Positions 8,050-24,099 of a DNA stretch of 64,000 nucleotides are shown in pieces. A program made the translations under genes and the position numbers. This stretch comes from Aliihoeflea sp. 2WW (GTDB lineage Bacteria > Pseudomonadota > Alphaproteobacteria > Rhizobiales > Rhizobiaceae): assembly GCF_000497755.1 (NCBI RefSeq), contig NZ_AYOD01000008.1, positions 124,001 to 188,000 of the forward strand, written 5' to 3'. Under the pieces are notes generated by a model. The model made no database searches. It worked only from the letters and a program-made list of their open reading frames with translations, and was not told the DNA's origin. Every line of letters begins with the position of its first letter. Position 1 is the first letter of the stretch.

Positions 8050-9093
8050 ATGACCGCTTTCATCGAGCTTCGCGACGTGTCCAAGACCTTCGGTCAGGTC
8101 ACGGTCGTCGAAGGGCTCAATCTCGAAGTCCGCAAGGGCGAGTTCCTGAGCCTGCTCGGTCCATCGGGTTCGGGCAAGACGACGATCCTGATGATGCTCG
8201 CCGGCTTCGAGGGCGCGACGTCGGGCGACATCCTGCTCGACGGCGAGAAGATCGACCATTTGCCGCCCTACAGGCGCGGCATGGGCGTCGTCTTCCAGAA
8301 CTACGCGCTCTTTCCGCATATGAGCGTTGCCGAGAACGTCGCCTTCCCGCTCGAAATGCGCGGCGTGCCGAAATCGGAGACCCGGCCGCGCGTGAAGGCC
8401 GCGCTCGACCGTGTGCAGCTAGGCCATCTGGCCGATCGCCGTCCGGACCAGCTTTCCGGCGGCCAGCAGCAGCGCGTGGCGCTGACCCGCGCGCTCGTCT
8501 ACGAGCCGAAGGTGATCCTGATGGACGAGCCGCTCGGCGCGCTCGACAAGAAGCTGCGCGAAGAAATGCAGCTCGAAATCCGCGAACTGCACCGGCGGCT
8601 GGGGCTGACGATCATCTTCGTCACCCACGACCAGTCCGAAGCGCTGACCATGTCCGACCGCATCGCGATTTTCGACGCCGGCAAGATCGCGCAGATCGGC
8701 ACGGCGGGCGAGGTCTACGACCGCCCGCAAAATCGCTTCGTCGCCGAATTCATCGGCGAGACGAACCTGCTTGACGGCGTGGTCAAGGAACCGGCGGCCG
8801 TCGAACTTGCGATTGCGACGACGATTGTCGCGCCCGACCATGGCTATGCGGCAGGCAGCCGCGTCTCTGTCTCGATCCGGCCCGAACGGCTGCGGTTCGA
8901 CGGCAGCGGCGAGAACCGGCTTGAGGCGACGATCTCGGATGTCGTCTATCAGGGCGATCATCTGCGATTGCATCTGGATGCCGGCACGCTGTCGCTGGTC
9001 GCGCGACTTGAGCGCGGAGCGGCCGAGCGGCATCCCGGCGAGACGGTGACCCTCTCCTTCGCTGCAGCCGACTGTTCGGTATTTCCGGCATGA
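8050..9093 (+). CDS. Polyamine-type ABC transporter ATPase (PotA-like)
   Basis: ATP-binding subunit of 347 aa. Walker A GPSGSGKTT (near residue 36), signature LSGGQQQR, Walker B VILMDEPLG and switch His VTHDQSE are all present. They are followed by a C-terminal TOBE-type regulatory region (about 245-347, with SIRPERLRF) typical of CUT1/PotA ATPases. It overlaps the first permease by four bases (ATGA), so the two are translationally coupled. It energises uptake of the ligand bound by the protein encoded at 6931-7980. Confidence 0.93.
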   Translation: MTAFIELRDVSKTFGQVTVVEGLNLEVRKGEFLSLLGPSGSGKTTILMMLAGFEGATSGDILLDGEKIDHLPPYRRGMGVVFQNYALFPHMSVAENVAFPLEMRGVPKSETRPRVKAALDRVQLGHLADRRPDQLSGGQQQRVALTRALVYEPKVILMDEPLGALDKKLREEMQLEIRELHRRLGLTIIFVTHDQSEALTMSDRIAIFDAGKIAQIGTAGEVYDRPQNRFVAEFIGETNLLDGVVKEPAAVELAIATTIVAPDHGYAAGSRVSVSIRPERLRFDGSGENRLEATISDVVYQGDHLRLHLDAGTLSLVARLERGAAERHPGETVTLSFAAADCSVFPA

Positions 9094-10274
9094 ACGCGGT
9101 CTCGGCACGGCAGCGCGGCCGGGCGGCGGTGCTGATCGCCCCGCTGGTGATTTTCCTCGGCGTCTTCTTCCTGTGGCCGCTCTGGCTGATGGTTGATGTC
9201 TCGATCCGCAACGACGCGATCGGCGGCGCCTTTCCACGCACGTCCGAACTGATCGGAAGCTGGGATGGCGAAGGGGCGCCGGACGCCGAGACGCAGGCCG
9301 CGCTGGTCGAGGATCTGCGCGAGGCTTCCCAATCGACGCTGGGCGCGGCGGTACGCACGCTGAACAGTCAGGTTTCCGGCTTCCGCACCCTAATGGGCAG
9401 AACGGCCACCGCGGCGCGCGACCTGGAGGTGGGCCAAACGCTCGATCTCGTCGAGGTCGACGATCGCTGGGCCGAACCGCGCTTCTGGCGGGCGATCCAG
9501 GTTTCGGTCGCGCCCTATACGGATCGAAATCTGCTCGCCGCGCTCGACCTCGAGCGTGCGGATACGGGCGAGATCGAGCCGATGCCCGCATCGGCGTCGG
9601 CCAACCGGTTGATCATCTGGCGCACCTTTGCCATCGCAGGCTCGGTCACGCTGCTCTGCGCGCTGATCGGCCTGCCCTATGCGATGCTCGCCGCCTCGGT
9701 GACGGGGTGGAAGCGCAATGCGTTGCTGCTTGCCGTGCTGCTGCCGCTCTGGACGTCGCTGCTCGTGCGCACGGCCGCTTGGTTCATCCTTCTCCAGAAC
9801 GAGGGGATCATCAACAAGACGCTGATGGGGCTCGGCTGGATCGACGGGCCGCTGCCGCTGATCTTCAACCGGCTCGGCGTCGTCATCGCCATGACGCATG
9901 TGCTGTTGCCGTTCATGGTGCTGCCGATCTTCTCCGTCGTCTCGGCGATCCCGAAGAATCTGATGCCGGCGGCAGCCTCGCTCGGCGCGCGGCCGCTGCG
10001 CGCCTTCTGGCGGGTGCTGCTGCCGCTTTCGATGCCCGGACTGCTGGCCGGTTCGTTGCTCGTCTTCATGGTGGCGATCGGCTACTACATCACGCCAGCG
10101 CTCGTCGGCGGGCCGAACGACCAGATGATCTCGTCCGTCATCGCCTTCTACGCGCTGCAGACCGCCAACTGGGGCATGGCCGGGGCGCTCGGCATCCTGC
10201 TGCTGGCGGTCACGACCGTGCTCTATCTGGTCTATGGCCGGCTGTCGCGCGGCGGCGCGCCGACGGGAGCCTAG
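9090..10274 (+). CDS. ABC transporter permease, PotB-like, with large periplasmic insertion
   Basis: Inner-membrane permease of 394 aa. The first membrane segment lies at about 12-33, then a hydrophilic stretch of about 130 residues (35-168) comes before the remaining segments, starting with FAIAGSVTLLCALIGLPYAM. E. coli PotB is about 285 residues and lacks this insert, which should face the periplasm and may contact the binding protein. The permease-ATPase contact motif is recognisable around AAASLGARPLRAFWRVLLPL (EAA loop). It overlaps the ATPase gene by four bases and is followed after two bases by the second permease. Confidence 0.9.
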   Translation: MNAVSARQRGRAAVLIAPLVIFLGVFFLWPLWLMVDVSIRNDAIGGAFPRTSELIGSWDGEGAPDAETQAALVEDLREASQSTLGAAVRTLNSQVSGFRTLMGRTATAARDLEVGQTLDLVEVDDRWAEPRFWRAIQVSVAPYTDRNLLAALDLERADTGEIEPMPASASANRLIIWRTFAIAGSVTLLCALIGLPYAMLAASVTGWKRNALLLAVLLPLWTSLLVRTAAWFILLQNEGIINKTLMGLGWIDGPLPLIFNRLGVVIAMTHVLLPFMVLPIFSVVSAIPKNLMPAAASLGARPLRAFWRVLLPLSMPGLLAGSLLVFMVAIGYYITPALVGGPNDQMISSVIAFYALQTANWGMAGALGILLLAVTTVLYLVYGRLSRGGAPTGA

Positions 10275-10276
10275 AG

Positions 10277-11062
10277 ATGCTGCGTGTCGCCCAGGCCATT
10301 TTCGGCGTTGCCGCCGCCCTCTTCCTGATCCTGCCGATCGTCGCGATCCTGCCGCTCGCCTTCACGTCGAGCATCTTCCTGAACTACCCCATCCCCGGCT
10401 ATTCGCTGCGCTGGTTCAACGAACTCGGCCAGATCGCGCACTGGCGCAATTCGATCGTCAATTCGCTGATCATCGGCTCGGGCGCGACCGTTCTGTCGGT
10501 CGTGCTCGGCACGCTCGCGGCACTTGGCCTTCGCGGACGTGGCATCCCCTTCCCCAACCTCCTGCGCACGATCTTCCTGCTTCCGATGGTGGTTCCGGCC
10601 GTGGTGCTGGGCGTCGGACTGCAGATTTCGCTGGCGCAAATCGGGCTGGCGAGCAGCTATCTCGGCGTCATCTTCTCGCACGCCGTGCTTTGCGTGCCCT
10701 TCGTCATCGTCTCGGTGTCGACCGCGCTGCAGGGGATCAACCCGACCGTCGAGCGGGCTGCAGCAAGTCTCGGCGCCTCGCCGACGCGCGTGTTTCGCCG
10801 CGTGACGATGCCGCTTGCGATGCCGGGCATCGTGACGGGAGCGGTGTTCGCCTTCGCGACCTCGCTCGACGAGGTGGTGCTGACGCTCTTCGTCGCCGGG
10901 CCAAACCAGCGCACGCTGGCACGGCAGATGTTTTCCTCCATCCGCGAGAACATCTCGCCCGCGGTCGCGGCCGCAGCACTTCTGCTCATCGTCGGAACGC
11001 TGCTTCTGGCGCTGCTCGCCGCCTATACGCGCCGGCGCACGGCGAAGACCGTCGAGGCCTGA
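10277..11062 (+). CDS. ABC transporter permease, PotC-like
   Basis: Second membrane subunit, 261 aa with six hydrophobic segments, normal length for PotC. The EAA loop reads AAASLGASPTRVFRRVTMPL. The start ATG at 10277 is just behind the stop of the first permease, with GGGAGC six to eight bases upstream. It completes the transporter (binding protein, ATPase, two permeases). The next 200 bases contain no gene but hold the control region of the Mrp operon. Confidence 0.92.
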   Translation: MLRVAQAIFGVAAALFLILPIVAILPLAFTSSIFLNYPIPGYSLRWFNELGQIAHWRNSIVNSLIIGSGATVLSVVLGTLAALGLRGRGIPFPNLLRTIFLLPMVVPAVVLGVGLQISLAQIGLASSYLGVIFSHAVLCVPFVIVSVSTALQGINPTVERAAASLGASPTRVFRRVTMPLAMPGIVTGAVFAFATSLDEVVLTLFVAGPNQRTLARQMFSSIRENISPAVAAAALLLIVGTLLLALLAAYTRRRTAKTVEA

Positions 11063-11112
11063 CGCGGGCTCACTCAGCCTGCAATCGCTCGCCTCACACC
11101 CTGAAGGTCGCC

Positions 11113-11159
11113 GTTCGGAATTTCGGACAGGCGTTTCCGGCGCGTTCGGAATTCCGAAC
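11113..11159 (+). promoter_or_regulatory. Two phased palindromic operators (candidate upstream activator sites)
   Basis: The site at 11144-11159 is a perfect 16-bp palindrome, GTTCGGAATTCCGAAC. A near copy, GTTCGGAATTTCGGAC (14 of 16 identical), lies at 11113-11128. The two are exactly 31 bases apart, about three helical turns, so dimers would sit on the same face of DNA. Centres fall about 87 and 118 bases before the start predicted from the sigma54 element at 11213-11228, the usual place for an NtrC-class activator. The likely protein is the response regulator at 19243-20577 (inference). Confidence 0.75.
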
Positions 11160-11212
11160 ATTTCGATTCCGGTCGTTCTCACAAGCCATTGTTTCCGCTT
11201 GATCTTCGGCTC

Positions 11213-11228
11213 TGGCACGCCCTTTGCA
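11213..11228 (+). promoter_or_regulatory. Sigma54 (RpoN) promoter of the mnh operon
   Basis: TGGCACG-N4-TTGCA matches the -24/-12 consensus at every conserved position, with the required 12-base offset between the GG (11214-11215) and GC (11226-11227) doublets. Initiation would be near 11239, about 24 bases before the GTG start of mnhA. Open-complex formation at such promoters needs an enhancer-binding ATPase, and one is encoded at the end of this operon. Confidence 0.88.
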
Positions 11229-11262
11229 CCATTACGGGAAGCAATGAAAGGAGCGCGATCCC

Positions 11263-13584
11263 GTGAGTTTCGAGTGGAGCATTCTGATGGCACTGGCCGG
11301 CGCGGCAATCGCACGGCCGGCGGCTACCTATCTGGGCAGCAGGACGGGCTGGGTGATGGCGCTCGTGCCGTTCCTGATCTTCCTGTCCCTCTTCCAGCAT
11401 CTCGGCACGGTCGCCGGCGGCGAGACGGTGATCGCGCATCTTTCATGGGTGCCATCCCTGGGCGTCGACCTCGCCTTCAGGCTGGACGGATTTTCTCTCC
11501 TCTTCGCATTGCTCATCACCGGCATCGGCACGCTCGTGACGCTTTATGCCGGGGCCTATTTCGCCGACAAGCCGCATTGGGAAATCGGCCGGTTCCTCGC
11601 GCTGATCCTGCTCTTCATGACGGCGATGCTCGGCACTGTGCTCTCCGACGATCTGATCGTCATGTTCGTCTTCTGGGAACTGACGAGCCTCACTTCGTTC
11701 ATGCTGATCGGCTTCGACGCCCACAAGGCGGAAGCACGCAAGTCCGCGATCCAGTCATTGCTGGTGACCGGCGGCGGCGGGTTGGTGCTGTTTGCCGGCA
11801 TCCTCATCATCGGCATGGAGCTCGGGACGTTCTCGTTCACCGAAGTGCTCGCGCGCTCGGACGAGTTGGTCGCCAGCCCCTGGATCGGCGTCGTCGTCGT
11901 CCTGATCATGATCGGCGCCTTCACCAAGTCGGCGCAGTTCCCGTTCCACTTCTGGCTGCCCAACGCGATGGCTGCGCCGACGCCGGCCTCCGCCTATCTG
12001 CACTCGGCAACGATGGTGAAGCTCGGCGTCTTCCTGCTTGCGCGGTTCGATGCCGTCTTCGCGGAGGTGCCCGCGTTCGGCGCGACGCTGGTTGTCATCG
12101 GCTCGACGACGATGATGATCGCGGCGCTTCAGGCGCTGCGCGCCGAAGGCTTCAAGGCCGTTCTCGCGCAATCGACCGTCGCGTCGCTCGGCATTCTCGT
12201 GATGCTGATCGGCTTGCAGGGCGAGGTTGCGGCTGTCGCGACGGTCGGATTCATCCTCAGCCACGCACTCTACAAGGCCGCGCTGTTCTTCTGCGCCGGC
12301 ACCGCGATCCACGCCACCGGCGAGGCGAGCCTGCGCAAGCTCGGCGGCCTTGCCCGCTTCCTGCCGGTGACGGCGGTCGCCGCCGTGCTTGCCAGCCTCA
12401 GCATGGCCGGCCTGCCGCCCTTCGTGGGCTTCATCTCCAAGGAGTATCTGTTCGAAGCGCAGCTCACCAATGACTGGAACATCGTGCCTGTCGCAGTTGC
12501 GGTCGCGGTCAATGCGGTCATGGTAGGCGTCGCCGGCGTCGTCTCGATCCGGCCGTTCTACTTCAAGAGCCATCGCGTCACCTCCGTCAAGCATGGCGAG
12601 ACGCCGGGGCTTCTTGCCGGGCCGCTCCTTCTGGCAAGCGGCGGCATTCTGATCGGCCTCTTCCCGAATGCGATCGGCCAGTCGCTGATCGGACCGGCCG
12701 CTTCCGCGCTTTACGGCAGCCCGATCGACGTATCGTTCCAGCTCTGGCACGGACTGACGCCGATGCTCGTGCTGAGCTTCGCGGTCGTCGCCATCGGAAC
12801 TGCGATCGTCATCTACTGGGATGCGATCCATACCTATCTGCGCCAGCAGGACGGGCTCTACCGGCTGCTGGGCGACCGGGGCTATCACCGGGTTCTCGAC
12901 GGCGTGCTCGGCGCGGCGCGCGGGTCCACCCGACTGCTGCAGAACGGCGACCAGCGGCGCTATACGAGCGTCGTCATCGCCACCGTCGTCATCGGGCTCG
13001 CCATCGCGCTCGTCGCCGGTCCGGCCGCGATCTCGATCGCCTCGCCCGAAGGGGCGCTGCGCATATCGCTCGTGTTGGTGCTGCTGCTTACGGCAGCCGG
13101 AGCGCTGGCGACGGTCAAGGCGCGCTCGCTGATCGCAGGGCTCGTCTGCGTCGGGATCGTGGGTTTCGCGCTTGCGGTCATCTTCATGCTGAACGGGGCA
13201 CCGGATCTCGCACTGACGCAGATCGCGGTCGAAACGCTGCTCGTCATCCTTCTGACCGCGGTTCTCCTGCGCCTGCCTGCCCGGCAGAAGCACTCTCGCA
13301 CCACCTCCGAACGGCGGCGGGACGCGTTGCTGGCGACATGTTTCGGCGGTGTCATCTTCATCGCCGTCGCCAGCATGAGCGCGATCCCGATCGACCTGCG
13401 CCTCTCCGACTATTTCGGCGAGACGAGCTATCTCGACGCCTATGGACGCAACGTCGTGAACGTCATCCTCGTCGACTACCGGGCCATCGACACGCTCGGC
13501 GAGATCGCCGTCGTCGCCTTCGCCACCATCGCGGCCTGGGCGCTTCTGCGCGGTTCTGCCGCCAGACCTGGCCCCAAGGAGTAG
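11263..13584 (+). CDS. mnhA: Na+(K+)/H+ antiporter Mrp complex subunit A
   Basis: Largest subunit of the multi-subunit cation/proton antiporter, 773 aa, about 20 membrane segments, homologous to complex I NuoL. Visible signatures are FTKSAQFPFHFWLP, then PTPASAYLHSATMVKLG (residues about 213-250), the proton-channel His region SHALYKAALFFCAGTAIHAT, and the C-terminal MrpA-specific piece GAPDLALTQIAVETLLVILL (about 645-665). The length equals the stand-alone MrpA of seven-gene systems, so it is not the longer A-B fusion known from some rhizobia. The start is GTG at 11263 with AAGGAG about ten bases upstream. First gene of the operon, behind the sigma54 promoter. Confidence 0.95.
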   Translation: MSFEWSILMALAGAAIARPAATYLGSRTGWVMALVPFLIFLSLFQHLGTVAGGETVIAHLSWVPSLGVDLAFRLDGFSLLFALLITGIGTLVTLYAGAYFADKPHWEIGRFLALILLFMTAMLGTVLSDDLIVMFVFWELTSLTSFMLIGFDAHKAEARKSAIQSLLVTGGGGLVLFAGILIIGMELGTFSFTEVLARSDELVASPWIGVVVVLIMIGAFTKSAQFPFHFWLPNAMAAPTPASAYLHSATMVKLGVFLLARFDAVFAEVPAFGATLVVIGSTTMMIAALQALRAEGFKAVLAQSTVASLGILVMLIGLQGEVAAVATVGFILSHALYKAALFFCAGTAIHATGEASLRKLGGLARFLPVTAVAAVLASLSMAGLPPFVGFISKEYLFEAQLTNDWNIVPVAVAVAVNAVMVGVAGVVSIRPFYFKSHRVTSVKHGETPGLLAGPLLLASGGILIGLFPNAIGQSLIGPAASALYGSPIDVSFQLWHGLTPMLVLSFAVVAIGTAIVIYWDAIHTYLRQQDGLYRLLGDRGYHRVLDGVLGAARGSTRLLQNGDQRRYTSVVIATVVIGLAIALVAGPAAISIASPEGALRISLVLVLLLTAAGALATVKARSLIAGLVCVGIVGFALAVIFMLNGAPDLALTQIAVETLLVILLTAVLLRLPARQKHSRTTSERRRDALLATCFGGVIFIAVASMSAIPIDLRLSDYFGETSYLDAYGRNVVNVILVDYRAIDTLGEIAVVAFATIAAWALLRGSAARPGPKE

Positions 13585-13590
13585 ACCGCC

Positions 13591-13995
13591 ATGTCCATAA
13601 TCTTCTCGACCATGTCGCGGCTGTTCTTCGCGCTGATGCTGATCGTCTCGATCTACATGCTGTTCCGAGGCCACAACGAGCCCGGCGGGGGCTTCGTCGG
13701 CGGGCTGATCGCCGCGCTCGGCTTCGCCCTGCTGGCGCTTGCCGAAAACGTCGCGACGGCGCGGCGGGCGCTGATGGTTCATCCCGTCGCGCTGATGGGT
13801 GCCGGACTGCTGCTCGCCTTCGCCAGCGGCCTGCCCGGGCTGCTCTCGGATCGCTCGTTCCTGACGCACTGGTGGGCCGAGATCGGTTCGCTTCACCTCG
13901 GCACCGCGACCACGTTCGACATCGGCGTCTACTTCGTCGTCATCGGCGGCGTGCTGTGCCTCATCTTCCGCCTTTATGAAGAGGTCGATCAATGA
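13591..13995 (+). CDS. mnhB: Mrp antiporter subunit B
   Basis: Membrane protein of 134 aa with four hydrophobic segments. The conserved motif [20 protein letters not shown] (residues about 28-47) is diagnostic for MnhB/MrpB, which is related to part of the hydrogenase-like complex I family. It starts six bases after mnhA and overlaps mnhC by four bases (ATGA). All seven Mrp subunits are needed for antiport in characterised systems. Normal length, no irregularity. Confidence 0.94.
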
Positions 13996-14370
13996 GCCTC
14001 GTCTATGCACTCGCGATCGCCGTCCAGATGGGTTGCGGCGTCTATCTGCTCTTGTCGCGCCATGTGGTGCGCATCGTTCTCGGGGTCGTGCTGCTTTCGG
14101 CGGCGACGAACCTCCTGATCTTCGTGGCCGGCGGCCTCGTCTTCACCGCGCCGCCCGTCATCGTCCAGGGCACGCAGACATTGGGCGCAGAAGCCGCCAA
14201 CCCATTGCCGCAGGCGCTGATCCTGACGGCAATCGTCATCGGGTTTGCGCTCGTGGCATTCGCCGCCGCGCTCGTCCTCAAGACCTATCGCGCCGTCGGA
14301 TCGGTCCTCACAAGCGGCCATACCGATGCCGAGGCGCTCGGTAGCCCGTTCGACGCGGAGGCCACGCGCA

Positions 14371-14378
<8 letters not shown>
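13992..14378 (+). CDS. mnhC: Mrp antiporter subunit C (NuoK-like)
   Basis: A 128-residue, three-helix membrane protein of the NuoK/MrpC family. The signature is the second helix [20 protein letters not shown] with a following [10 protein letters not shown] loop, and helix three starts [20 protein letters not shown]. It overlaps mnhB by four bases and mnhD by eight. The complex I homologue carries a conserved Glu in helix two; here that place is taken by nonpolar residues, as in other MrpC. Confidence 0.93.
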
Positions 14379-15887
<1,509 letters not shown>

Positions 15888-15891
<4 letters not shown>

Positions 15892-16226
15892 AAAACATTA
15901 TTCATCGCGTCCTGACCGCCATCCTTCTGGCAGGCATCTTCCTTCGGGAACTGGTCGTCTCGTCGATCGCCGTCGCAAGATCGGTGCTCGGCGAACGCGA
16001 TGCCGCCTCCTCCGCGATCATCGCCGTACCCGTCACGTTGAAGACGCGGGCCGGCGTCACCACGCTGGCCAATTGCGTGACGCTGACACCCGGCACGACC
16101 TCGCTCCACGTCAGCGAGGACATGGAGACGCTTTACATCCACGTCCTCGACGCCCCGTCGAGCGAGACGGTGATCGCCGACATCAAGAACACATTCGAGG
16201 CACGCATCAAGGAGATCGAGGGATGA
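15888..16226 (+). CDS. mnhE: Mrp antiporter subunit E, short form
   Basis: A 112-residue protein matching only the C-terminal two thirds of MrpE, which is usually about 160 aa. It begins with one hydrophobic helix (HRVLTAILLAGIFLRELVVS) and then the soluble domain with the family motif LANCVTLTPGTTSLHVSEDM and ETLYIHVLDAP. The first pair of membrane helices found in longer MrpE proteins is absent: the gene starts at ATG 15888, four bases inside mnhD, with GCAGGAG upstream, so no room is left for them. It overlaps mnhF by four bases. The short form appears intact rather than truncated by mutation. Confidence 0.9.
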
Positions 16227-16513
16227 TCGAGTTTCTGGACAGTTCGCTTTCCACCATCGCAACGATCCTGATCACCGTGCTCATGGTGCCGCTCGGCCTT
16301 TCCGCGCTGCGAATGGCCACCGGACCGGGCTATGCCGACCGGTTCATCGCGCTCGACATGCTGACAGGGATCGCCGTCGCCATTGCCGGCCTCACCATGA
16401 TCGCGACGGGGCGACGGGAGTTTCTCGACATCGCCTTCGGCATCGCTCTGATCGGCTTCCTTGCGACCTGCTCGCTTTCTGCGCTGCTCGAAAAGAAAAA
16501 GGGAGACGACTGA
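16223..16513 (+). CDS. mnhF: Mrp antiporter subunit F
   Basis: A 96-residue, three-helix membrane protein. The MrpF signature GPGYADRFIALDMLTGIAVA is present in the loop and second helix, with the conserved Arg-Phe-Ile-Ala-Leu-Asp core. It is followed by a basic end EKKKGDD. It overlaps mnhE by four bases and shares one base with mnhG (TGATG). Normal size for the family, whose members bind or pass ions in the Mrp membrane arm. Confidence 0.93.
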   Translation: MIEFLDSSLSTIATILITVLMVPLGLSALRMATGPGYADRFIALDMLTGIAVAIAGLTMIATGRREFLDIAFGIALIGFLATCSLSALLEKKKGDD

Positions 16514-17760
16514 TGCTCGTCCTGATCTCGATCGCCCTGAAACTCGCCGGCGTCGCCTTCCTCGTCATCGCGGGCGTCGGCGTCATGCGCCTTTCGGACC
16601 CCTTCCAGCGCATGCATGCCGCAACGAAGGCCGGAACGCTTGGCGCGGGCCTCGTCATCCTCGGGTCGGTCGTCGCTCAAGGGGCGACGGACGCGACGGT
16701 GACGGGAATCCTGACGATCGTCTTTCTGCTCCTGACGGTTCCCGTCGCAGGGCACCTCCTCGGCCGCGCTTCCTACGTATCGGGCGCGCAGTTGTCGTTG
16801 CGGGGCGACAATGCCCTCGATGGAATTCTGGAGCGCTCGAGCCGGCCGCTCGACGAGCGCATGGGCTGGCTGCCCGCCGAAGGGGCGAGCAGCGTAGTCG
16901 CCGCCGAACCCGGCATCGTCGCGCGCCAGCGCCGTACTCAGGTCGTCGCCCTGCCTGCGCTGGAAGCTGTTCGATTCACCGTGATCGACGGCCATGTCGA
17001 GCGCGTCGCCGAACGCGCGAGCGCGATCGCCAAACTGTCCGGCGCCGATCTTTCCGCGCATGTCGTCATCGACACCCACGCGATCGAGACCGCGGACGAA
17101 CCGGCACAGATGCGCCGCCTGATCCGCGAGCGGGCGAGCAAGGCGATCCACGCCTTCAGAAGCTCCACCGGTGCCGCCGACGCGGCGCTGAACTATGACG
17201 AGGGCGACCCGGAACGTCTGCTAGCCTGCGCGCAGGCCGGCGAAGTCCTGCTGGTCGTGCCCTGCGAAGGCTGGTTCCATCACCAGGTGGAAGGCGGCCG
17301 GTCGCTGACGACGTGGGAGCCGGACGGGCTGCTGCGCCTTCCCGGCGTTCATTGCGGGCCTGTTCTTTTCGCCGCCTCGCGCCAGCCGTCGCGCCTGCCG
17401 ATCACGCTCGTCGTGCGCGATTGCGGCGAAGACCACCTGCCGGCGCTCGTCGAATGGGCGCTCCTGACCGGCATCTGGACCGTCGCGCGGCTCGTTCACG
17501 TCACGCAGCCAGATAGCGACGCTTCCATCATGCAGGACATCGCGGGCCGGTTCAGCTGCGAGTACGAGCGTCGTGAAGCGGCAAGCGCGGATTGCGCGAT
17601 ACCGGACGAATTCGGCGACGCGCGCGCCGTCATCCTGGGCAGCACGCCGCGTCCGCTGCGGACCAACTGGTTCGGCACGCACTGGCGCACGCGGATCGCG
17701 CCGGGCATGACGGGCGACGTCCTGATCATGGAAGCGCCGGGAAGACGTCTGGACTCATAG
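16513..17760 (+). CDS. mnhG: Mrp antiporter subunit G fused to a universal-stress-like soluble domain
   Basis: A 415-residue protein. Residues 1-90 are a complete MrpG with three membrane helices and the motif MRLSDPFQRMHAATKAGTLG. MrpG normally ends near 110-125 residues. Here a further 290 residues follow, hydrophilic and with alternating strand and helix patterns such as GEVLLVVPCEGWF, then PITLVVRDCGEDHLPALVEW and ARLVHVTQP. These resemble one or two universal stress protein (UspA) folds. Given the topology the tail should be cytoplasmic, where it could sense nucleotide or stress state. The fusion is read directly from one uninterrupted frame; the UspA assignment is by pattern and is less sure. 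It is followed after 29 bases by the sensor kinase. Confidence 0.88.
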   Translation: MLVLISIALKLAGVAFLVIAGVGVMRLSDPFQRMHAATKAGTLGAGLVILGSVVAQGATDATVTGILTIVFLLLTVPVAGHLLGRASYVSGAQLSLRGDNALDGILERSSRPLDERMGWLPAEGASSVVAAEPGIVARQRRTQVVALPALEAVRFTVIDGHVERVAERASAIAKLSGADLSAHVVIDTHAIETADEPAQMRRLIRERASKAIHAFRSSTGAADAALNYDEGDPERLLACAQAGEVLLVVPCEGWFHHQVEGGRSLTTWEPDGLLRLPGVHCGPVLFAASRQPSRLPITLVVRDCGEDHLPALVEWALLTGIWTVARLVHVTQPDSDASIMQDIAGRFSCEYERREAASADCAIPDEFGDARAVILGSTPRPLRTNWFGTHWRTRIAPGMTGDVLIMEAPGRRLDS

Positions 17761-17789
17761 GTCTGGCACAATAGCGCAAAAGTACGGTA

Positions 17790-19238
17790 ATGCCTCAGGC
17801 AATGCCCTCGCGCCTTCGCCAGAACCTGCCGCTGACCGCAGCGCTGCCGCTCTTCGTGGCGATCGCGATGTTCGTGGTCGCCGTCGGCACGACGCAGCTC
17901 GGCGTGCGGTTGCTGCAGTCCAGCGGGGAGTCGGCCCTGCGTGACCAGGCGGTGGTCTTTCTGGATGCCGTTGCCGGCAATGTTGCGGCGGAAATTCAAG
18001 AGGCGCCGCAAGCGGTGCGCGCGCAACTCGCCGCATCGCTGACCTACCGCACAGCGCTGCTCGAAGAAGCCATGGCAGCGCGCTGGATCGATGCGTCGGG
18101 CACGACGCAGACCGTCGTCCTCGGCGAGAACCATCGCACGATCCTGACTGCGGCGCTCGACGAGGCCGCCGCACTCGGCGTCGACGCCACGGCGTTCCGA
18201 ACCGCGGAGGATCGGGCGCTTCTGGTGGTGCTTCGGACCTATGCGATGGGCGAGATCGTGCTTTATCTCAGCGCAACCTTCGACACGATGCCCGTCATCG
18301 AGGCGGCCGATGCCGCGGCCGACATCGCGCTCGGCATCGACTTTCTCGTGGCAATCTTAGCTGCCATCGCCGTCTATGCCATCACCCGCAGGGTCCTGTC
18401 GCCTCTCGACCGGTTCATCAACCGCCTCGCCGAACACGATGCGCTGACGACCGGTCCCGCTCAATGGCGCCAGGGCGACGAGTTGCGACAGCTCGAGACC
18501 GCCCTTGCGCTGCGCGAAAAGTCGGAGGCCGAGCGCGTGCGTCTCCTCGAACAGATGGCGCAACAGGAACGCGACGCGCTTCTTGCGCGCATGGCGGCGG
18601 GGATTGCCCATGAGGTCCGCAATCCGCTTGCCGGCCTCAAGAACGGCGTTTCCACGCTGAAGCGGTTCGGCGACCGGCCGGAAGTTCGCGATCAGACGCT
18701 CGATCTCATCGAAAAAGGCCTCGACAGCATCGGCCGGGTTGTCGACGTCACCTTGTCGACCTACCGCCGCCGCTCGGGGCCTTCACGGCTTGGCGCGCAG
18801 GACATCCGCGACCTCGATCTCCTGATCCAGCCGGAAGCGCGCCGGGCAGGCGTCGAACTCGTCTGGAAACTCGACGAAACGGCAAAAGTCGATGCGGATG
18901 CGGACGCGCTGCGCCAGATCCTGATCAACCTGATGCTGAATGCCGTGCGGGCGTCGCCTGAGAACGGCATTGTCACCATCACGCTGGAACGCGATGCCGA
19001 TGAGCGGACGATATCGCTCGGCATCGCGGACCAGGGAAAGGGAATGCCGCCGGAGATGGTCGCGGCGATCGTCTCGGGCCGCATGGAGGAGATCCCCGTC
19101 GAGCGCAGCATCGGCATTTGGGTGGTCGCCAACCTGGTCGAGCGCATCGGCGCGAACCTTTCGATCCGAAGCGAGGATGGCGTCGGGACCACGGTCAGGA
19201 TTGCGCTGCCCGAAAGCGCCTTGGCGGCGGAGGTGTAG
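17790..19238 (+). CDS. Membrane sensor histidine kinase of the mnh operon
   Basis: A 482-residue two-component sensor. A hydrophobic helix at about 14-38 and another at about 178-200 enclose a periplasmic sensing region of about 140 residues with no recognised domain. The kinase core has the phospho-acceptor His274 in AGIAHEVRNPLAGLKNG, an N-box LINLMLNAVRAS, a G1 box GIADQGKGMPPE and a final region DGVGTTVRIALPES. The type is NtrB/AtoS-like, the class that partners sigma54 activators. It lies 29 bases behind mnhG and four bases before the response regulator. The input could be ion concentration, pH or osmotic state, by context only. Confidence 0.93.
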   Translation: MPQAMPSRLRQNLPLTAALPLFVAIAMFVVAVGTTQLGVRLLQSSGESALRDQAVVFLDAVAGNVAAEIQEAPQAVRAQLAASLTYRTALLEEAMAARWIDASGTTQTVVLGENHRTILTAALDEAAALGVDATAFRTAEDRALLVVLRTYAMGEIVLYLSATFDTMPVIEAADAAADIALGIDFLVAILAAIAVYAITRRVLSPLDRFINRLAEHDALTTGPAQWRQGDELRQLETALALREKSEAERVRLLEQMAQQERDALLARMAAGIAHEVRNPLAGLKNGVSTLKRFGDRPEVRDQTLDLIEKGLDSIGRVVDVTLSTYRRRSGPSRLGAQDIRDLDLLIQPEARRAGVELVWKLDETAKVDADADALRQILINLMLNAVRASPENGIVTITLERDADERTISLGIADQGKGMPPEMVAAIVSGRMEEIPVERSIGIWVVANLVERIGANLSIRSEDGVGTTVRIALPESALAAEV

Positions 19239-19242
19239 ACCG

Positions 19243-20577
19243 ATGACCCAGCCTCTGATCCTTCTGGTGGAAGACGACGCGACACTTGGGGCTTCGCTGC
19301 GCCAGCGGCTGGAACTCGAGGGTTTTCGCGTGTCCTGGGCGAGGACGGCCGACGAGGCGCTCGCCAGCCTGTCGAGGATCGAGCCGGCGATCATCCTGTC
19401 CGACATCCGGCTGCCGGATGGCGATGGCGAGACCGTCATGCGCCGGCATTTCGACCGTCTCGGGCTCGTTCCGACGATTTTCATGACGGCATTCGGCGAT
19501 ATCGACCAGGCGGTCCGGCTGGTGCGTGACGGCGCGCTCGACTATGTCACCAAGCCGTTCGATCTCGATAGGCTCGTCGATACGCTTCGCGATCTGGCAA
19601 GCCGCAGCGCGATGGCCAGTGAACCGCACTCGGACCCGTTCGCGACGAGCGCCGCGATGCGCCGTATCGGCGAGATGCTGTCGCGCGCGGCGGGGATCGA
19701 CCTGCCCGTCTTGCTTCTGGGCGAAACGGGAACCGGCAAGGAGGTCGCCGCCCGCCATCTCCACCGGACGGGCCCTCGCGCGGCCCTGCCCTTCGTGCCC
19801 GTCAATTGCGGCGCGCTGCCCGGCGAACTCGCCGATTCGATGATCTTCGGCCATGAGCGCGGCTCGTTCACCGGGGCGGTCGGACAGCATCGGGGTTTTC
19901 TGGAGGAAGCCGAGGCGGGCACGCTGTTTCTCGACGAAATCGGCGATCTGCCGCTCAGCCTTCAGGTGAAATTGCTGCGCGTTCTCGAGACGCGCGAATT
20001 TCGCCGTCTCGGAGGCAGCGAGATGCGGACATTTTCGGGCCGTATCGTTTGCGCGACCAACAGAAACCTCGAGGCCCTCGTTGCGGACGGGTCGTTCCGC
20101 GAAGATCTCTGGTTCCGAATCAACGTCATAAGCTGCACGCTTCCACCTCTGCGCGAGCGTGCCGACGGCATTCCGGACATGCTGCGAAGCTTCACGGCGG
20201 CGGCTGCAATGCGCATGGGCCGCCCGGCGCCGGCGATCGATGCATCGGCCGTCGAGGCCGCGCTCGCCCATGGCTGGCCGGGAAACATCCGCGAGATGAT
20301 CAATCGCGTTGACCGTGCGGTCGCGCTTGGAAACGGGTCGACGCTTTTAGAGCGCGACCTGTTTCCCGATGGCATAAGCAAGCCGGCCGGTTCTTTGGAC
20401 ATGGGACCCGCCAGCGGTACGCTGTCGGACATTCGCGAGGCTGCCGAGCGCAGGCACATCGTCGCGGCTCTTGCCAGGACCGGCAACTCGCCGAAGGAAG
20501 CGGCCGATCTCCTGGGTGTTTCGCGTACGACGCTGTGGGAGAAGATGCGCCGATATGGCATCGAGGCGGATGACTGA
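19243..20577 (+). CDS. NtrC-family sigma54-dependent response regulator
   Basis: A 444-residue activator with three domains. The receiver (1-120) has acidic pair EDD (10-12), phospho-Asp54 in ILSDIRLPDGDG, FMTAFG and the Lys of VTKPF. The AAA+ domain has Walker A GETGTGKE (160-167), the sigma54-contact loop GSFTGA (207-212) in place of the more common GAFTGA, and Walker B TLFLDEIGD. The C-terminal Fis-type helix-turn-helix reads GNSPKEAADLLGVSRTTLWE. The start ATG at 19243 follows GGCGGAGG. It should bind the palindromes at 11113-11159 and activate the sigma54 promoter of its own operon (inference). Confidence 0.95.
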   Translation: MTQPLILLVEDDATLGASLRQRLELEGFRVSWARTADEALASLSRIEPAIILSDIRLPDGDGETVMRRHFDRLGLVPTIFMTAFGDIDQAVRLVRDGALDYVTKPFDLDRLVDTLRDLASRSAMASEPHSDPFATSAAMRRIGEMLSRAAGIDLPVLLLGETGTGKEVAARHLHRTGPRAALPFVPVNCGALPGELADSMIFGHERGSFTGAVGQHRGFLEEAEAGTLFLDEIGDLPLSLQVKLLRVLETREFRRLGGSEMRTFSGRIVCATNRNLEALVADGSFREDLWFRINVISCTLPPLRERADGIPDMLRSFTAAAAMRMGRPAPAIDASAVEAALAHGWPGNIREMINRVDRAVALGNGSTLLERDLFPDGISKPAGSLDMGPASGTLSDIREAAERRHIVAALARTGNSPKEAADLLGVSRTTLWEKMRRYGIEADD

Positions 20578-20606: not shown

Positions 20607-21797
20607 CTATGTCCGCTCGTCCGCAATGACCTTGCCGTCATTTGGAAGGTCGCCGACCGGCACAATCTCGACGCGGCCCTTGAGCTTGGTGATCTCGGCG
20701 AGTTTTTGCGCCGCAGCGGCGGCCAGCGACTGGTCCGCGTGTTCGATCTTCAGGACCATCGCGTCCTGCTCGTCCGCACGCGTCACCACCAGGCGCATGC
20801 GACCGGAAATGCCCAGCACCCTGGCGAGAGCGGCGACCTGCTCGGGGCGCACGAACATGCCCTTGACCTTGGTCGCCTGATCGGCACGGCCCATCCAGCC
20901 GGCGATGCGGCGACGGCCATCGACCGCAGCCAAGGCGCGCGACATGTCGCCGGTGGCGAAGCGGATCAACGGATAGTCACGGTTGAGGCGGGTGACGACG
21001 ATCTCGCCGACCTCGCCGTCGGGCAGCGGATCGTCGGTGCCGGGGCGGACGATTTCCAGCACGACGCCGTCATTGACCGCCATGCCCTCCCCGCCATCCT
21101 CATAGGCGACGATGCCGAGGTCGGCCGTGCCGTAGCACTGGACGACCGCGACGCCGCGTTCGACGAGGTCGGCGCGCAGGCTGGGCGGAAGCGCCGCGCC
21201 GGACACGACGGCCCGACGGATCGGAGACGCGATGTCCGCCTCGCGAGCCTTGTCGAGCAGGATTTTCAGGAAATCAGGCGTGCCGATATAGACGGTCGGC
21301 TGAAACTGCACCATCGCGACGAGCTGGTCGGCGGTGTTGCCGGGTCCGGCCGGGATGACGGCGCAGCCGAGCGCATGGGCTCCGCTTTCGAACATCGCGC
21401 CTGCCGGCGTCAGATGGTAGGAAAACGTGTTGAGGACGATGTCCTGCGGCCCGACGCCGGCCGCCGCCAGAGCCTTTGCCGCGCCCCACCAATCCCTGCC
21501 ATGGCCTTCCGGGTCGAAGATCGGGCCTGGCGAGACAAAAAGGCGTGCGAGCCTGCCGGCCGGCGTTGCCGTCAATCCACCGAATGGGGGCGCCTTAGCC
21601 TGCAGTTCGGCGAGTTCCGACTTGCGCAGGACCGGGACTGCGCCAAGCGCGTCTCGCGAGGTGAGTGCCGCGACATCGACGCCTGCGAGGCGCGCGGCCC
21701 AGAAGGGCTGGTGCTCTGCCGCGCGCGAAATCTGCGCCCGCATCGCCGCCAGAAGATCGGCGTCGCCGCCCGGCGCGATGTCTCGATGCTCGACCAT
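20607..21797 (-). CDS. Phenylacetate-CoA ligase-like AMP-binding enzyme
   Basis: An adenylate-forming enzyme of 396 aa related to PaaK, which activates aromatic or other carboxylic acids to CoA thioesters. The core includes FVSPGPIFDPEG, where the usual glycine-rich loop (SSGTTG) is replaced by SPGP. It also has the adenine-binding CYGTADLG, the hinge region DPLPDGEVGEIVVTRLNRD and a C-terminal ACT-like half with KVKGMFVRPEQV. The start at 21797 is preferred because AGGGAG precedes it; an ATG at 21818 lacks one. It is the last gene of a cluster with a Liv-type importer and another acyl-CoA ligase. It ends 29 bases from the convergent response-regulator gene. Confidence 0.85.
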   Translation of the reverse strand: MVEHRDIAPGGDADLLAAMRAQISRAAEHQPFWAARLAGVDVAALTSRDALGAVPVLRKSELAELQAKAPPFGGLTATPAGRLARLFVSPGPIFDPEGHGRDWWGAAKALAAAGVGPQDIVLNTFSYHLTPAGAMFESGAHALGCAVIPAGPGNTADQLVAMVQFQPTVYIGTPDFLKILLDKAREADIASPIRRAVVSGAALPPSLRADLVERGVAVVQCYGTADLGIVAYEDGGEGMAVNDGVVLEIVRPGTDDPLPDGEVGEIVVTRLNRDYPLIRFATGDMSRALAAVDGRRRIAGWMGRADQATKVKGMFVRPEQVAALARVLGISGRMRLVVTRADEQDAMVLKIEHADQSLAAAAAQKLAEITKLKGRVEIVPVGDLPNDGKVIADERT

Positions 21798-21822
21798 GCG
21801 GTCTCCCTGCAGGTTCATGAAC

Positions 21823-22659
21823 TCAGGCCAGCCAGCGCTTGCGGCGCTTGTAATGCTTCACGTCACGGAACGATTTGCGCCCCTCGCCGCCGACGCCGAG
21901 GTAGAATTCCTTGACGTCGTCGTTCTCGCGCAAGGCCTTCGCCTCGCCGTCGAGGACGACGCGGCCGGATTCGAGGATGTAGCCATATTTGGCATAGCGC
22001 AGCGCGACATTGGTGTTCTGTTCGGCCAGCAGAAACGAGACGCCCTGCTCGTCGTTGAGCTTCTTCACGATCTCGAAGATTTCCTCGACGAGCTGCGGCG
22101 CGAGGCCCATGGATGGCTCGTCGAGCAGGATCATCTTCGGCCGCGACATCAGTGCCCGGCCGATCGCGGTCATCTGCTGCTCGCCGCCGGATGTATATCC
22201 GGCCTGGCTGGTGCGGCGTTCCCGCAGACGCGGGAAATACTGGTAGACGAGTTCGAGATCGTCGCGGATTGCGGCCGCTCCGTCCTTGCGGGTGAACGCG
22301 CCGGTCATCAGATTGTCCTCGACCGACAGATGGCCGAAGCAATGCCGGCCTTCCATCACCTGAATGCAGCCGCGGCGCACCAGCGTATTGGGCGACAGCG
22401 CCTGGACCTCCTGCCCCTCGAACAGGATCGAGCCCTTGGTGACCTCGCCGCGTTCGGCATGGAGAAGGTTGGAAATCGCCTTCAGCGTCGTCGTCTTGCC
22501 GGCGCCGTTGGCGCCGAGAATGGCGGTGATGCCGCCGCGCGGAACCGACAGCGAGACGCCTTTCAGCACCAGAATGACGTGATCATAGATCACTTCGATA
22601 TTGTTGACCGCGAGGATCGGCTCGGCGGTATCGGGCGTGGGTGCGGTCATTGGTGTCAT
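21823..22659 (-). CDS. livF: Liv-type ABC transporter ATPase (LivF)
   Basis: A 278-residue ATPase with Walker A GANGAGKTT, the signature region TSGGEQQM and Walker B MILLDEPSMGL. The sequence after Walker B (GLAPQLVEEIFEIV) is typical of LivF rather than LivG. A basic C-terminal tail (KHYKRRKRWLA) extends beyond the family's usual end. The start is uncertain: ATG 22659 lies just after the terminator at 22679-22712, and a GTG at 22674 and an ATG at 22650 are alternatives. It is four bases or more ahead of the PaaK-like gene. It works with LivG, LivH, LivM and the binding protein in this cluster. Confidence 0.88.
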   Translation of the reverse strand: MTPMTAPTPDTAEPILAVNNIEVIYDHVILVLKGVSLSVPRGGITAILGANGAGKTTTLKAISNLLHAERGEVTKGSILFEGQEVQALSPNTLVRRGCIQVMEGRHCFGHLSVEDNLMTGAFTRKDGAAAIRDDLELVYQYFPRLRERRTSQAGYTSGGEQQMTAIGRALMSRPKMILLDEPSMGLAPQLVEEIFEIVKKLNDEQGVSFLLAEQNTNVALRYAKYGYILESGRVVLDGEAKALRENDDVKEFYLGVGGEGRKSFRDVKHYKRRKRWLA

Positions 22660-22678
22660 CGCTGTTTCTATCACCTGG

Positions 22679-22712
22679 AAAAAAGCGCGGCGAGGAGGTT
22701 TCCCCGCCGCGC
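22679..22712 (-). terminator. Rho-independent terminator inside the Liv cluster
   Basis: On the minus strand an 8-bp GC stem (GCGCGGCG with CGCCGCGC) is followed at once by six T residues. It lies ten bases after the stop of the binding-protein gene and before livF. It probably acts as a partial terminator that keeps the binding protein in excess over LivF and the PaaK-like ligase. Confidence 0.85.
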
Positions 22713-22722
22713 GTGACTTGTC

Positions 22723-24036
22723 CTATTCCGCGCAGTCGTCGTTCATCTGCCAGGGCTGGTTGGCGGCGGCATAGTCTGCGGAGGCCTTCTCGACCAGCGG
22801 ATCAATGACGGCGCGATCGGCCGTCATCAGGTCGGAGACCTTGACGAACTTGGTGCCGTCCCACTCGATCATCCAGGCGCTGGCGTGGCCGGTGTGGTTC
22901 GAGCAGCTCATCGCGAAGGGCGCCATCATCTCCTCGGCGCCGAGCTCGGCAAGGCGGGCCTCGTCGAGGTTGACGCTTTCCAGGCCCTTGCGGAGCTGCT
23001 CCTGGTTGATCATCGGCGTGCCGGCTTCCGTCTGCGCGGCTTCCACCGCCTCCGCCAGGATGACCGACATCAGGATGCCGCGCTGATAGGCGGTGGTGTC
23101 GAACTCGCCGGCGCCCTGGTTGAGCTGCGACTTGCCGGCATCGACGACGTGCGTCTTCACGTCCTGCATGAGCTTGGATTCGGAATCGACGAAATTCCAC
23201 GACAAGGCACGGTATCCCTTGGCCTGTTCGCCGACGAGCTTCAGGTCGGGCTCATGCGCGCCCCACCAGACGCTGACGAACTGCTCCATCGGGTAGCGAG
23301 TCTTCACAGCTTCGGTGATGGCGCCGGCATTCATCGCGCCCCAGCCCCACATGATGACGAAGTCGGGCCGCTCGCGGCGTATCTGCAGCCACTGGGCGGA
23401 CTGGTTCTGCATCTCGGTCAGGCCGACCGGGATCGGCAGAAGTTCGAAGCCGTGGGTTCCGGCCATCGCTTCGAGGAGCGGCAGTGGCTCCTTGCCGTAG
23501 GGATGGTCGAGATGGAGGAATGCGATCTTCTTGCCGTCGAGACTGTCGAGATTGCCGTCCGCGACGGCCTGCATGATCATCGACGCGCCGTCCCAATAGG
23601 ATGTCGGCGGGTTGAATGCCCATTTGAAGGTCTTGCCGTCCTGCATGGCCGAGAAGCCGTAGCCAGGCGCGAACATGGGGATTTCGTCGACATTGGTGCG
23701 CGGAAGCACCTGAAGCGTGATGCCGGTCGACCAGGGCTGCGTGACCAGCGCACCTTCCGACTTCAGCTTCTCGTAGCACTCGACGCCCTTTTCGGTGTTG
23801 TAGCCCGTCTCGCACTCTTCGAACGCGATCCTGACGCCGCCGATGCCGCCGTCGCGCTCGTTGAGCATGGTCATGTAGTCGAGCTGGCCGTTCATGTGCG
23901 GCGTGCCGGTCGCCGCGAACGGGCCGGTCCGGTAGGACATGTTGGGCAGCTTCAACACTTCCTGCGCGAAGGCCGGCGCGGCGATGCCGGCCGCAAGGAT
24001 GCCGGCCGCAAGAGCCGTTACGTGCTTCATTTTCAT
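22723..24036 (-). CDS. Liv-type ABC transporter periplasmic binding protein
   Basis: A type-I solute-binding protein of 437 aa with a Sec signal peptide (MKMKHVTALAAGILAAGIAA, cleavage after AFA near residue 25). The mature chain has the two-lobed pattern of LivJ-like receptors (for example KKIAFLHLDHPYGKEPLPLL and FVIMWGWGAMNAGAITEAVK). Cys pairs near ECETGYNTEKGVECY and in the C-terminus (SCSNHTGH, DDCAE) may form disulfides. It is longer than amino-acid LivJ (about 370), like family members that bind aromatic or acyl compounds. The start ATG at 24036 follows GAGGAG at good distance. Neighbouring CoA ligases suggest a carboxylic-acid ligand. Confidence 0.9.
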   Translation of the reverse strand: MKMKHVTALAAGILAAGIAAPAFAQEVLKLPNMSYRTGPFAATGTPHMNGQLDYMTMLNERDGGIGGVRIAFEECETGYNTEKGVECYEKLKSEGALVTQPWSTGITLQVLPRTNVDEIPMFAPGYGFSAMQDGKTFKWAFNPPTSYWDGASMIMQAVADGNLDSLDGKKIAFLHLDHPYGKEPLPLLEAMAGTHGFELLPIPVGLTEMQNQSAQWLQIRRERPDFVIMWGWGAMNAGAITEAVKTRYPMEQFVSVWWGAHEPDLKLVGEQAKGYRALSWNFVDSESKLMQDVKTHVVDAGKSQLNQGAGEFDTTAYQRGILMSVILAEAVEAAQTEAGTPMINQEQLRKGLESVNLDEARLAELGAEEMMAPFAMSCSNHTGHASAWMIEWDGTKFVKVSDLMTADRAVIDPLVEKASADYAAANQPWQMNDDCAE

Positions 24037-24099
24037 CAGTCGCTCCTCCACATTCGCCCGTATCGGGCTTTGCCTCAATCAACCCGCACCGCTCTCTCC

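What the first reader, a model, noticed from the sequence alone, without database searches (positions are those of the whole stretch)
11113..20577. Self-contained sigma54-controlled Mrp antiporter operon with its own two-component system
Seen: a perfect TGGCACG-N4-TTGCA promoter, two 16-bp palindromes phased by 31 bases at about -87 and -118, seven mnh genes, then a histidine kinase and an NtrC-class activator with sigma54-contact loop, all on one strand with gaps of at most 29 bases. Known: NtrC-class activators bind paired palindromes 80-150 bases upstream. Inference: the kinase senses an ion, pH or osmotic cue and the regulator drives the antiporter and itself. I do not recall sigma54 control of an Mrp system being described.
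Basis: partly seen in the sequence, partly recalled or inferred. Interest (0 to 1): 0.85.

Follow-up and report, generated by a model that had tools for sequence, protein, structure and literature searches.

The report
Ion pump run by arsenite-type switch
A seven-part bacterial ion pump is encoded together with its own sensor-and-switch pair, a cousin of the switch that turns on arsenite-oxidizing enzymes and with near-identical DNA landing sites; this gives a concrete, testable scheme for how such pumps may be controlled.

Summary
Window 11113-20577 carries an exact -24/-12 element, two 16-bp boxes 31 bp apart, mnhABCDEFG, a histidine kinase and an NtrC-class activator, on one strand with gaps of at most 29 bp.

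All 12 close relatives keep the nine-gene order, the -24/-12 and the box pair. Box 2 lies 68-69 bp from the -24 element in 18 of 19 promoters of such operons; none of 27 Mrp operons without the pair shows this set.

The perfect box differs by one base from an AioR site footprinted by others; one relative's box is identical. AioX is missing from 14 of 18 genomes with the operon. MnhG carries about 300 extra residues predicted to fold as a tandem universal stress protein. An IHF-like site fits 9 of 16 promoters.

Best reading: an autoregulated, sigma54-dependent Mrp module driven by an AioX-independent AioSR-like pair. The cue is unknown: probably ionic or pH, possibly metalloid. I found no report of sigma54 control of Mrp in the papers searched. 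No expression data exist here.

The parts
11113..11128 (+). activator box 1, GTTCGGAATTTCGGAC
   Evidence: a box pair lies at the same place in all 12 close relatives
11144..11159 (+). activator box 2, perfect palindrome GTTCGGAATTCCGAAC
   Evidence: one base from the AioR site footprinted in A. tumefaciens GW4 (PMC5335332)
11182..11194 (+). IHF-like site CAAGCCATTGTTT, 8 of 9 to YAANNNNTTGATW (consensus recalled; found after looking at the promoters)
   Evidence: at least 8 of 9 at offset 21-23 past box 2 in 9 of 16 promoters, 7 of 9 in 3, 6 or less in 4
11213..11228 (+). sigma54 -24/-12 promoter TGGCACGCCCTTTGCA; transcription start expected about 11239 (inference)
11263..13584 (+). mnhA (773 aa, GTG start; MbhD- and MbhE-like C-terminal parts)
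   Evidence: start codon GTG in all 12 close relatives
13591..13995 (+). mnhB (134 aa)
   Evidence: PF04039
13992..14378 (+). mnhC (128 aa)
   Evidence: PF00420
14371..15891 (+). mnhD (506 aa; ATG at 14371, my searches used 14374 on)
   Evidence: PF00361
15888..16226 (+). mnhE (112 aa)
   Evidence: PF01899
16223..16513 (+). mnhF (96 aa)
   Evidence: (PF04066, from 16262 on)
16513..17760 (+). mnhG (415 aa): PF03334 subunit G (residues 11-88) plus a predicted tandem universal-stress-protein domain (about 150-410)
17790..19238 (+). AioS-family sensor histidine kinase (482 aa), His274, predicted periplasmic sensor about residues 46-165
19243..20577 (+). AioR-family sigma54 activator and response regulator (444 aa), Asp54, loop GSFTGA, HTH with SRTTLWEKMRR

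Best explanation
This is a self-contained, positively autoregulated ion-homeostasis module. A membrane kinase of the AioS family, without an AioX partner, reads a cue through its own periplasmic sensor and phosphorylates an AioR-family activator. The activator binds two GTTCGG-type boxes about 90 and 120 bp upstream of the start, IHF probably bends the 52-53 bp gap, and the activator opens sigma54 RNA polymerase at the -24/-12 promoter. One transcript then makes the seven-subunit Mrp cation/proton antiporter plus more kinase and regulator. Shown here: gene order, promoter parts with fixed spacing and conservation, family kinship. Inferred: DNA binding, phosphotransfer, sigma54 dependence, a single transcript, antiport, IHF. 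The cue is most likely ionic or pH (about 0.55), a metalloid next (about 0.25). The Usp-like domain of MnhG may tune the pump from the cytoplasm (speculative).
For: Nine-gene order in 12 of 12 close relatives and in distant alphaproteobacteria G304, G245, G391 and G132; in G072 it is split over two contigs. Box pair and -24/-12 in all 12 close relatives. Box 2 to -24 distance 68-69 bp in 18 of 19 promoters (16 of 17, plus L138 and L139). None of 27 Mrp operons without such a pair has the set (26, plus L091). The two boxes are the only sites within 2 mismatches of the palindrome in the genome. Boxes match a footprinted AioR site and aioBA promoters of other genomes carry pairs of the same kind. 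Kinase and regulator form one family with AioS/AioR. rpoN present.
Against: No expression, binding or phenotype data. L022's boxes lie 105 bp from the -24 element; its pair score (17 of 28, 40 of 300 shuffles as good) and L089's (18 of 28) fall within the range of the controls (14-18), because their boxes read GTTCA instead of GTTCGG. L089 and L090 have only 9 of 11 -24/-12 positions (18 of 300 shuffles as good each), L139 also 9. The IHF-like site is poor in 4 of 16 promoters. The regulator gene of L033 is frameshifted near its C-terminus in a draft assembly. The window's genome also encodes AioXSR, which might read the boxes.
Confidence: 0.85

Rival explanations
1. The operon belongs to the arsenite regulon: AioR from the aioXSR-aioBA locus activates mnhA through the AioR-type boxes, and the local pair is auxiliary.
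For: One box differs by one base from a footprinted AioR site; the window's genome has aioXSR-aioBA; 4 of 13 close genomes have true aioA, at least 69% identical; the title of Kashyap 2006 says a Na+:H+ antiporter is essential for arsenite oxidation in A. tumefaciens (title seen only in a reference list; paper not held).
Against: 9 of 13 close genomes keep operon and boxes without aioA; AioX is absent from 14 of 18 genomes with the operon. In the window's genome the aioBA promoter has a diverged box (GTTCAGAAACGTGAAC) and its AioR a diverged recognition helix (SRTTLFNKM), while the mnh regulator has SRTTLWEKM and GTTCGG boxes. No known arsenic-resistance family among 20 flanking proteins scanned, 4 of which gave no family.
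Confidence: 0.12
2. The local kinase itself senses arsenite, antimonite or another oxyanion without AioX, and the Mrp pump restores ion balance under metalloid stress.
For: Kinship with AioS, including an alignable sensor region.
Against: aioX is reported essential for aioBA expression (PMC5908839, PMC7533571, passages), so AioS sensing runs through AioX; the window's kinase is only 25-27% identical to the aio-linked rows and by eye least so in the sensor; most genomes with the operon have no aioA.
Confidence: 0.2
3. Boxes and -24/-12 are real but mnhA is mainly transcribed from another promoter, with sigma54 playing a minor part.
For: The -24/-12 is judged by sequence alone.
Against: No sigma70-consensus site in 11000-11300 (only the classical consensus is scanned); the sigma54 parts are conserved in all close relatives.
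Confidence: 0.06

Closest known systems
AioXSR-aioBA, arsenite oxidase regulation (A. tumefaciens GW4 and 5A, Rhizobium sp. NT-26)
   Same: Homologous kinase and NtrC-class regulator in the same order; two tandem palindromes 100-200 nt upstream and a -24/-12 (PMC3834237, passages); near-identical box (PMC5335332, passages); recognition helix WEKM in 11 of 14 AioRs and 12 of 18 mnh regulators looked at.
   Different: Target is an Mrp antiporter; no aioX beside it and none in 14 of 18 genomes; the pair lies downstream inside the target operon; mostly separate branches in the trees.
Seven-gene Mrp/Mnh/Pha antiporters (CPA3)
   Same: All seven subunits in standard order; MnhG N-terminal part matches solved Mrp subunit G 7qru_G.
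   Different: Own two-component pair, sigma54 promoter and Usp-like extension of MnhG; none of these found at the genome's second Mrp, MnhA 41% identical (L149; 8.2 kb downstream of mnhA seen).
Tandem universal stress proteins (Rv2623, UspE, TTHA0350)
   Same: Predicted fold of the MnhG extension; cytoplasmic domains of cation-chloride cotransporters also match there.
   Different: Fused to an antiporter subunit; model confidence only moderate (pLDDT 63.5).
Sigma54 promoters with paired activator sites and an IHF bend (nif-type, recalled)
   Same: Same layout of parts.
   Different: Other target genes; the nif comparison was not tested.

Membership tests
sigma54-dependent promoter | -24/-12 core at fixed spacing, conserved among orthologs | tested here: met
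   11 of 11 scored positions in the window, 10 or 11 in all 12 close relatives
sigma54-dependent promoter | transcription lost without rpoN; start about 12 bp below -12 | not testable with these tools
   needs RNA and mutants
NtrC-class sigma54 activator | receiver, AAA+ domain with GAFTGA-type loop, Fis-type HTH | tested here: met
   GETGTGKE, LDEIG and GSFTGA; loop S or A among relatives
AioSR-type regulator pair | groups with aioX-linked pairs, apart from the genome's other NtrC-class regulators | tested here: met
   (regulator); kinase tree without outgroup
AioSR-type regulator pair | GTT-N10-AAC-type box pair upstream of -24/-12 | tested here: met
   several boxes depart at an end (GAC, ATT, GTC)
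AioXSR arsenite system | AioX encoded with the pair | tested here: not met
   none in the operon; no match at 1e-20 in 14 of 18 genomes with the operon
AioXSR arsenite system | controls aioBA | tested here: not met
   by position only: the operon encodes Mrp, and aioBA has its own AioXSR next to it
Mrp/CPA3 antiporter | subunits A-G encoded together | tested here: met
Mrp/CPA3 antiporter | cation/proton antiport | not testable with these tools
   needs vesicle or complementation assay
Universal stress protein domain | Usp fold or Pfam match | tested here: met
   Foldseek E 1.8e-9 to tandem Usps; Pfam Usp in 8 of 15 MnhG members, best E 7.9e-6, not in the window's own
Universal stress protein domain | ATP-binding motif G-2X-G-9X-G(S/T) (recalled) | tested here: inconclusive
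   not seen by eye; no formal scan

The most novel reading that the evidence does not exclude
The mnh-linked pair is an AioX-free branch of the AioSR family whose first role was ion homeostasis; arsenite control of aioBA would then have arisen when a copy of this Mrp switch gained AioX and was retargeted, keeping the same DNA boxes. The Usp-like domain of MnhG would be a second, cytoplasmic sensor coupling pump and switch.
Probability: 0.25. Interest if true: 0.8.

Novelty: new variant of a known kind. Interest (0 to 1): 0.6.

Why it matters
It offers a complete, conserved and apparently dedicated circuit for switching on an Mrp antiporter, with exact sites to test. It also warns that AioR-type boxes do not by themselves mark arsenite genes: a motif scan for the AioR regulon in genomes with this operon will pick up an ion pump that may answer to another kinase. 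Four of the 13 close genomes carry both switches, a natural case for studying insulation and cross-talk between paralogous regulators, and possibly relevant to the reported need for a Na+:H+ antiporter in arsenite oxidation.

Tried and rejected
Considered and set aside: (1) Pseudomonas AauR as source of the motif (recalled); dropped when the nearest relatives proved AioSR-linked. (2) A strict link to arsenite oxidation: aioA in only 4 of 13 close genomes. (3) A strict pair TTCGG-N4-CCGAA twice within the genome: none, as box 1 is imperfect; one search found both sites. (4) An inverted repeat across the expected start: reached by at most 4 of 200 shuffles in L032 and L036-L040, but not in the window (132 of 200). 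(5) Plasmid copies: no kinase match at 1e-40 in 72,556 records. (6) mnh ancestral to aio: suggested by the first regulator tree, but in the larger one the branches are roughly sisters (86/60 and 86/85), L088 sits on the aio side and the aio group itself has only 79/57; outgroups are long. In the kinase tree (midpoint root) four distant mnh-linked rows (L022, L088, L089, L090) fall on the aio side. Not decided.

Error found on checking: in my script queries subunit F was taken one base out of frame, so F hits there mean nothing; one search repeats F in frame. A first repeat failed for the same reason.

Rows dropped or partial: four short hits (L042-L045, 29-32% over the kinase core); L033 (frameshift) and L011 (long branch) from the tree; L090 from alignment A6. 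Searches scored only the top 4 or 8 candidates of each genome, so absences there are soft. Of the MnhA matches, 28 loci were fetched. Two are of the TCS type (L138, L139); the other 26 count as without it. Of these, L158 and L149 end 5.9 and 8.2 kb past mnhA; five have another kinase core nearby but no regulator hit; L140 has a MnhG extension without pair or sigma54 promoter; L161 and L164 have a 10-of-11 -24/-12 match at +2, inside the gene. mnhA starts in the controls are estimates from the alignment.
Full report
What is there. The window is part of a 4.14-Mb genome whose nearest relatives in this operon are Rhizobiaceae and Phyllobacteriaceae. From 11263 to 20577 nine genes run on the + strand: mnhA, B, C, D, E, F, G, a histidine kinase and an NtrC-class response regulator. 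Neighbours overlap or lie at most 29 bp apart. Upstream lie TGGCACGCCCTTTGCA at 11213-11228 and two boxes, GTTCGGAATTTCGGAC (11113) and GTTCGGAATTCCGAAC (11144), 31 bp apart. The second is a perfect palindrome; the first is symmetric at 6 of 8 pairs.

More than chance. The exact -24/-12 pattern is expected 0.01 times in the window; with two mismatches allowed it is no rarer than chance. Two boxes within two mismatches occur in none of 100 shuffles. In the whole genome these two sites are the only ones within two mismatches of the palindrome; a degenerate pattern with one mismatch adds one single site on another contig.

Conservation. A scan of 84,980 species genomes with the kinase gave 16 loci, of which 12 are full-length relatives, L030-L041: Rhizobium, Agrobacterium albertimagni, Peteryoungia, Aliihoeflea, Aquibium, Mesorhizobium, Pannonibacter and a Rhizobiaceae MAG. 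That scan finds close relatives only. All 12 have the same nine genes in the same order (F 81-95% identical). All 12 have the -24/-12 (10 or 11 of 11 scored positions) and a box pair 30-33 bp apart.

Edges of the unit. One large open frame upstream in 10 of the 12 loci and one downstream in 10 were scanned: mostly different families in each genome, 4 without a family. L030, the nearest relative, shares the window's downstream AMP-ligase gene (89% identical). So the conserved unit among the less close relatives is the operon itself.

Distance and controls. In 16 of 17 promoters of such operons box 2 starts 68-69 bp before the -24 element. Two more, L138 (G072) and L139 (G103, whose kinase and regulator lie on another contig, so the link is inferred), give 68. 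The exception is L022 (G132), at 105. As controls, 26 Mrp operons of the same order without such a pair, among them the genome's own second Mrp, and L091 of another order, have best pair scores of 14-18 of 28, against 23-27 in window and close relatives. None of these 27 has a -24/-12 match of 9 or more upstream of the gene. Of the distant positives, L089 (18) and L022 (17) fall within the control range by pair score, as their boxes read GTTCA.

A possible third element. In the 52-53 bp between box 2 and the -24 element I saw matches to the IHF consensus YAANNNNTTGATW (recalled). At offset 21-23 past box 2, 9 of 16 promoters score at least 8 of 9, 3 score 7 and 4 score 6 or less. The summed best score is 119 against at most 108 in 1000 single-base shuffles. 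The idea came from these same sequences and many are related, so this is suggestive only. The window has CAAGCCATTGTTT (8 of 9).

Who the kinase and regulator are. In 199 genomes of the order 16 had a kinase match at 1e-40. Of the 15 besides the window's, 3 lie next to mnhG, 11 next to aioX, and one is cut by a contig end; that genome, G103, has an mnhA-G set with extended MnhG on another contig. In 398 genomes of the phylum all 10 matches at 1e-70 outside the window's genome lie next to aioX. In 385 genomes of the class, 5 had an MnhG match at 1e-35: the window's, three with the kinase and regulator behind it (G304, G245, G391) and one, G222, without. The window's genome has both kinds: the mnh pair, and aioX-aioS-aioR-aioB-aioA on another contig. 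Among its five regulator matches (itself included) the mnh regulator is nearest to AioR (49%; the next 41-42% over part of the length).

Trees. In the regulator trees the aio-linked rows are one group (97/99; 79/57 with more rows). The close mnh-linked rows are another, and the distant mnh-linked rows lie between or beside them. In the kinase tree, which has no outgroup, four distant mnh-linked rows fall nearer to the aio group. Which target came first is not settled.

The boxes are AioR-type. In A. tumefaciens GW4 AioR protects GTTCGGATTTCCGAAC (PMC5335332, passages). A box of L032 is identical; the window's perfect box differs by one base. The helix SRTTLWEKM or SRSTLWEKM is present in 12 of 18 mnh regulators (L033 is frameshifted) and, allowing GR for SR, in 11 of 14 AioRs. 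In several rows where it differs (window AioR, A. albertimagni AioR, L022, L089) boxes read GTTCA instead of GTTCGG; L031 and L090 are intermediate. That tendency was judged by eye.

No AioX. AioX has no match at 1e-20 in 14 of 18 genomes with the operon, and true aioA is found in 4 of 13 close genomes. So the mnh branch persists without the arsenite-binding protein and without arsenite oxidase. The kinase model (pLDDT 66.9) shows helix, helix, two strands, helix, three strands at 46-165, which I read as a Cache-like periplasmic sensor; no Pfam sensor family matched the window's kinase, so this is inference.

MnhG. The subunit has about 300 extra residues. Pfam finds Usp weakly in 8 of 15 members, not in the window's. 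The predicted structure (pLDDT 63.5) matches tandem universal stress proteins at 1.8e-9 and, less well, cytoplasmic domains of cation-chloride cotransporters. L140 has an extension but no pair, so the two are not strictly coupled.

What is known. Full-text searches of 5.39 million open papers gave no title or listed abstract describing sigma54 or NtrC-type control of an Mrp system; I did not open every paper listed, and subscription papers are mostly missing. The Mrp review PMC5703873, searched for set terms only, has no 'sigma' or 'two-component'. [quoted passage not shown] I could not read it.

Verdict. By sequence, a real, apparently dedicated and autoregulated sigma54 circuit for an Mrp antiporter, built from an AioSR-family pair without AioX. 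The parts are known kinds; the combination and the family link appear new.

Noticed in passing
G000:C16 (L029 8335-15150) and G201:C15 (L094): AioX, AioR, AioB and AioA are identical and AioS 99.8% identical between the window's genome and Aliihoeflea sp. 40Bstr573, while MnhA is 79% identical: suggests recent transfer of the arsenite oxidase genes.
   Followed up: partly
L036-L040 and L032, between -12 and mnhA start: An inverted repeat (CCTCTTGCTGTCC ... GGACAACAAGAGG in L037) spans the expected transcription start and covers the -12 element and ribosome site; not present in the window.
   Followed up: partly
L039 11944-17677: A. albertimagni AOL15 has a second, convergent Mrp operon (30-43% identical subunits) directly downstream of this one.
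   Followed up: no
L140 (G131): An Mrp operon with a MnhG extension (30% identical) but no kinase/regulator pair and no sigma54 promoter.
   Followed up: partly
L033 10446-11804: Regulator gene of Pannonibacter phragmitetus DSM 14782 is frameshifted before the HTH in this draft assembly; may be a sequencing error.
   Followed up: no
G238 (L105 and L101): Two aioX-linked AioS copies, one with a stop inside and one matched in two pieces of different frame.
   Followed up: no
window 8050-11062 and 20607-24078: Neighbours: an ABC transporter (ATPase with TOBE_2, two permeases) upstream; an AMP-ligase, an ABC ATPase and a periplasmic binding protein on the other strand downstream.
   Followed up: partly
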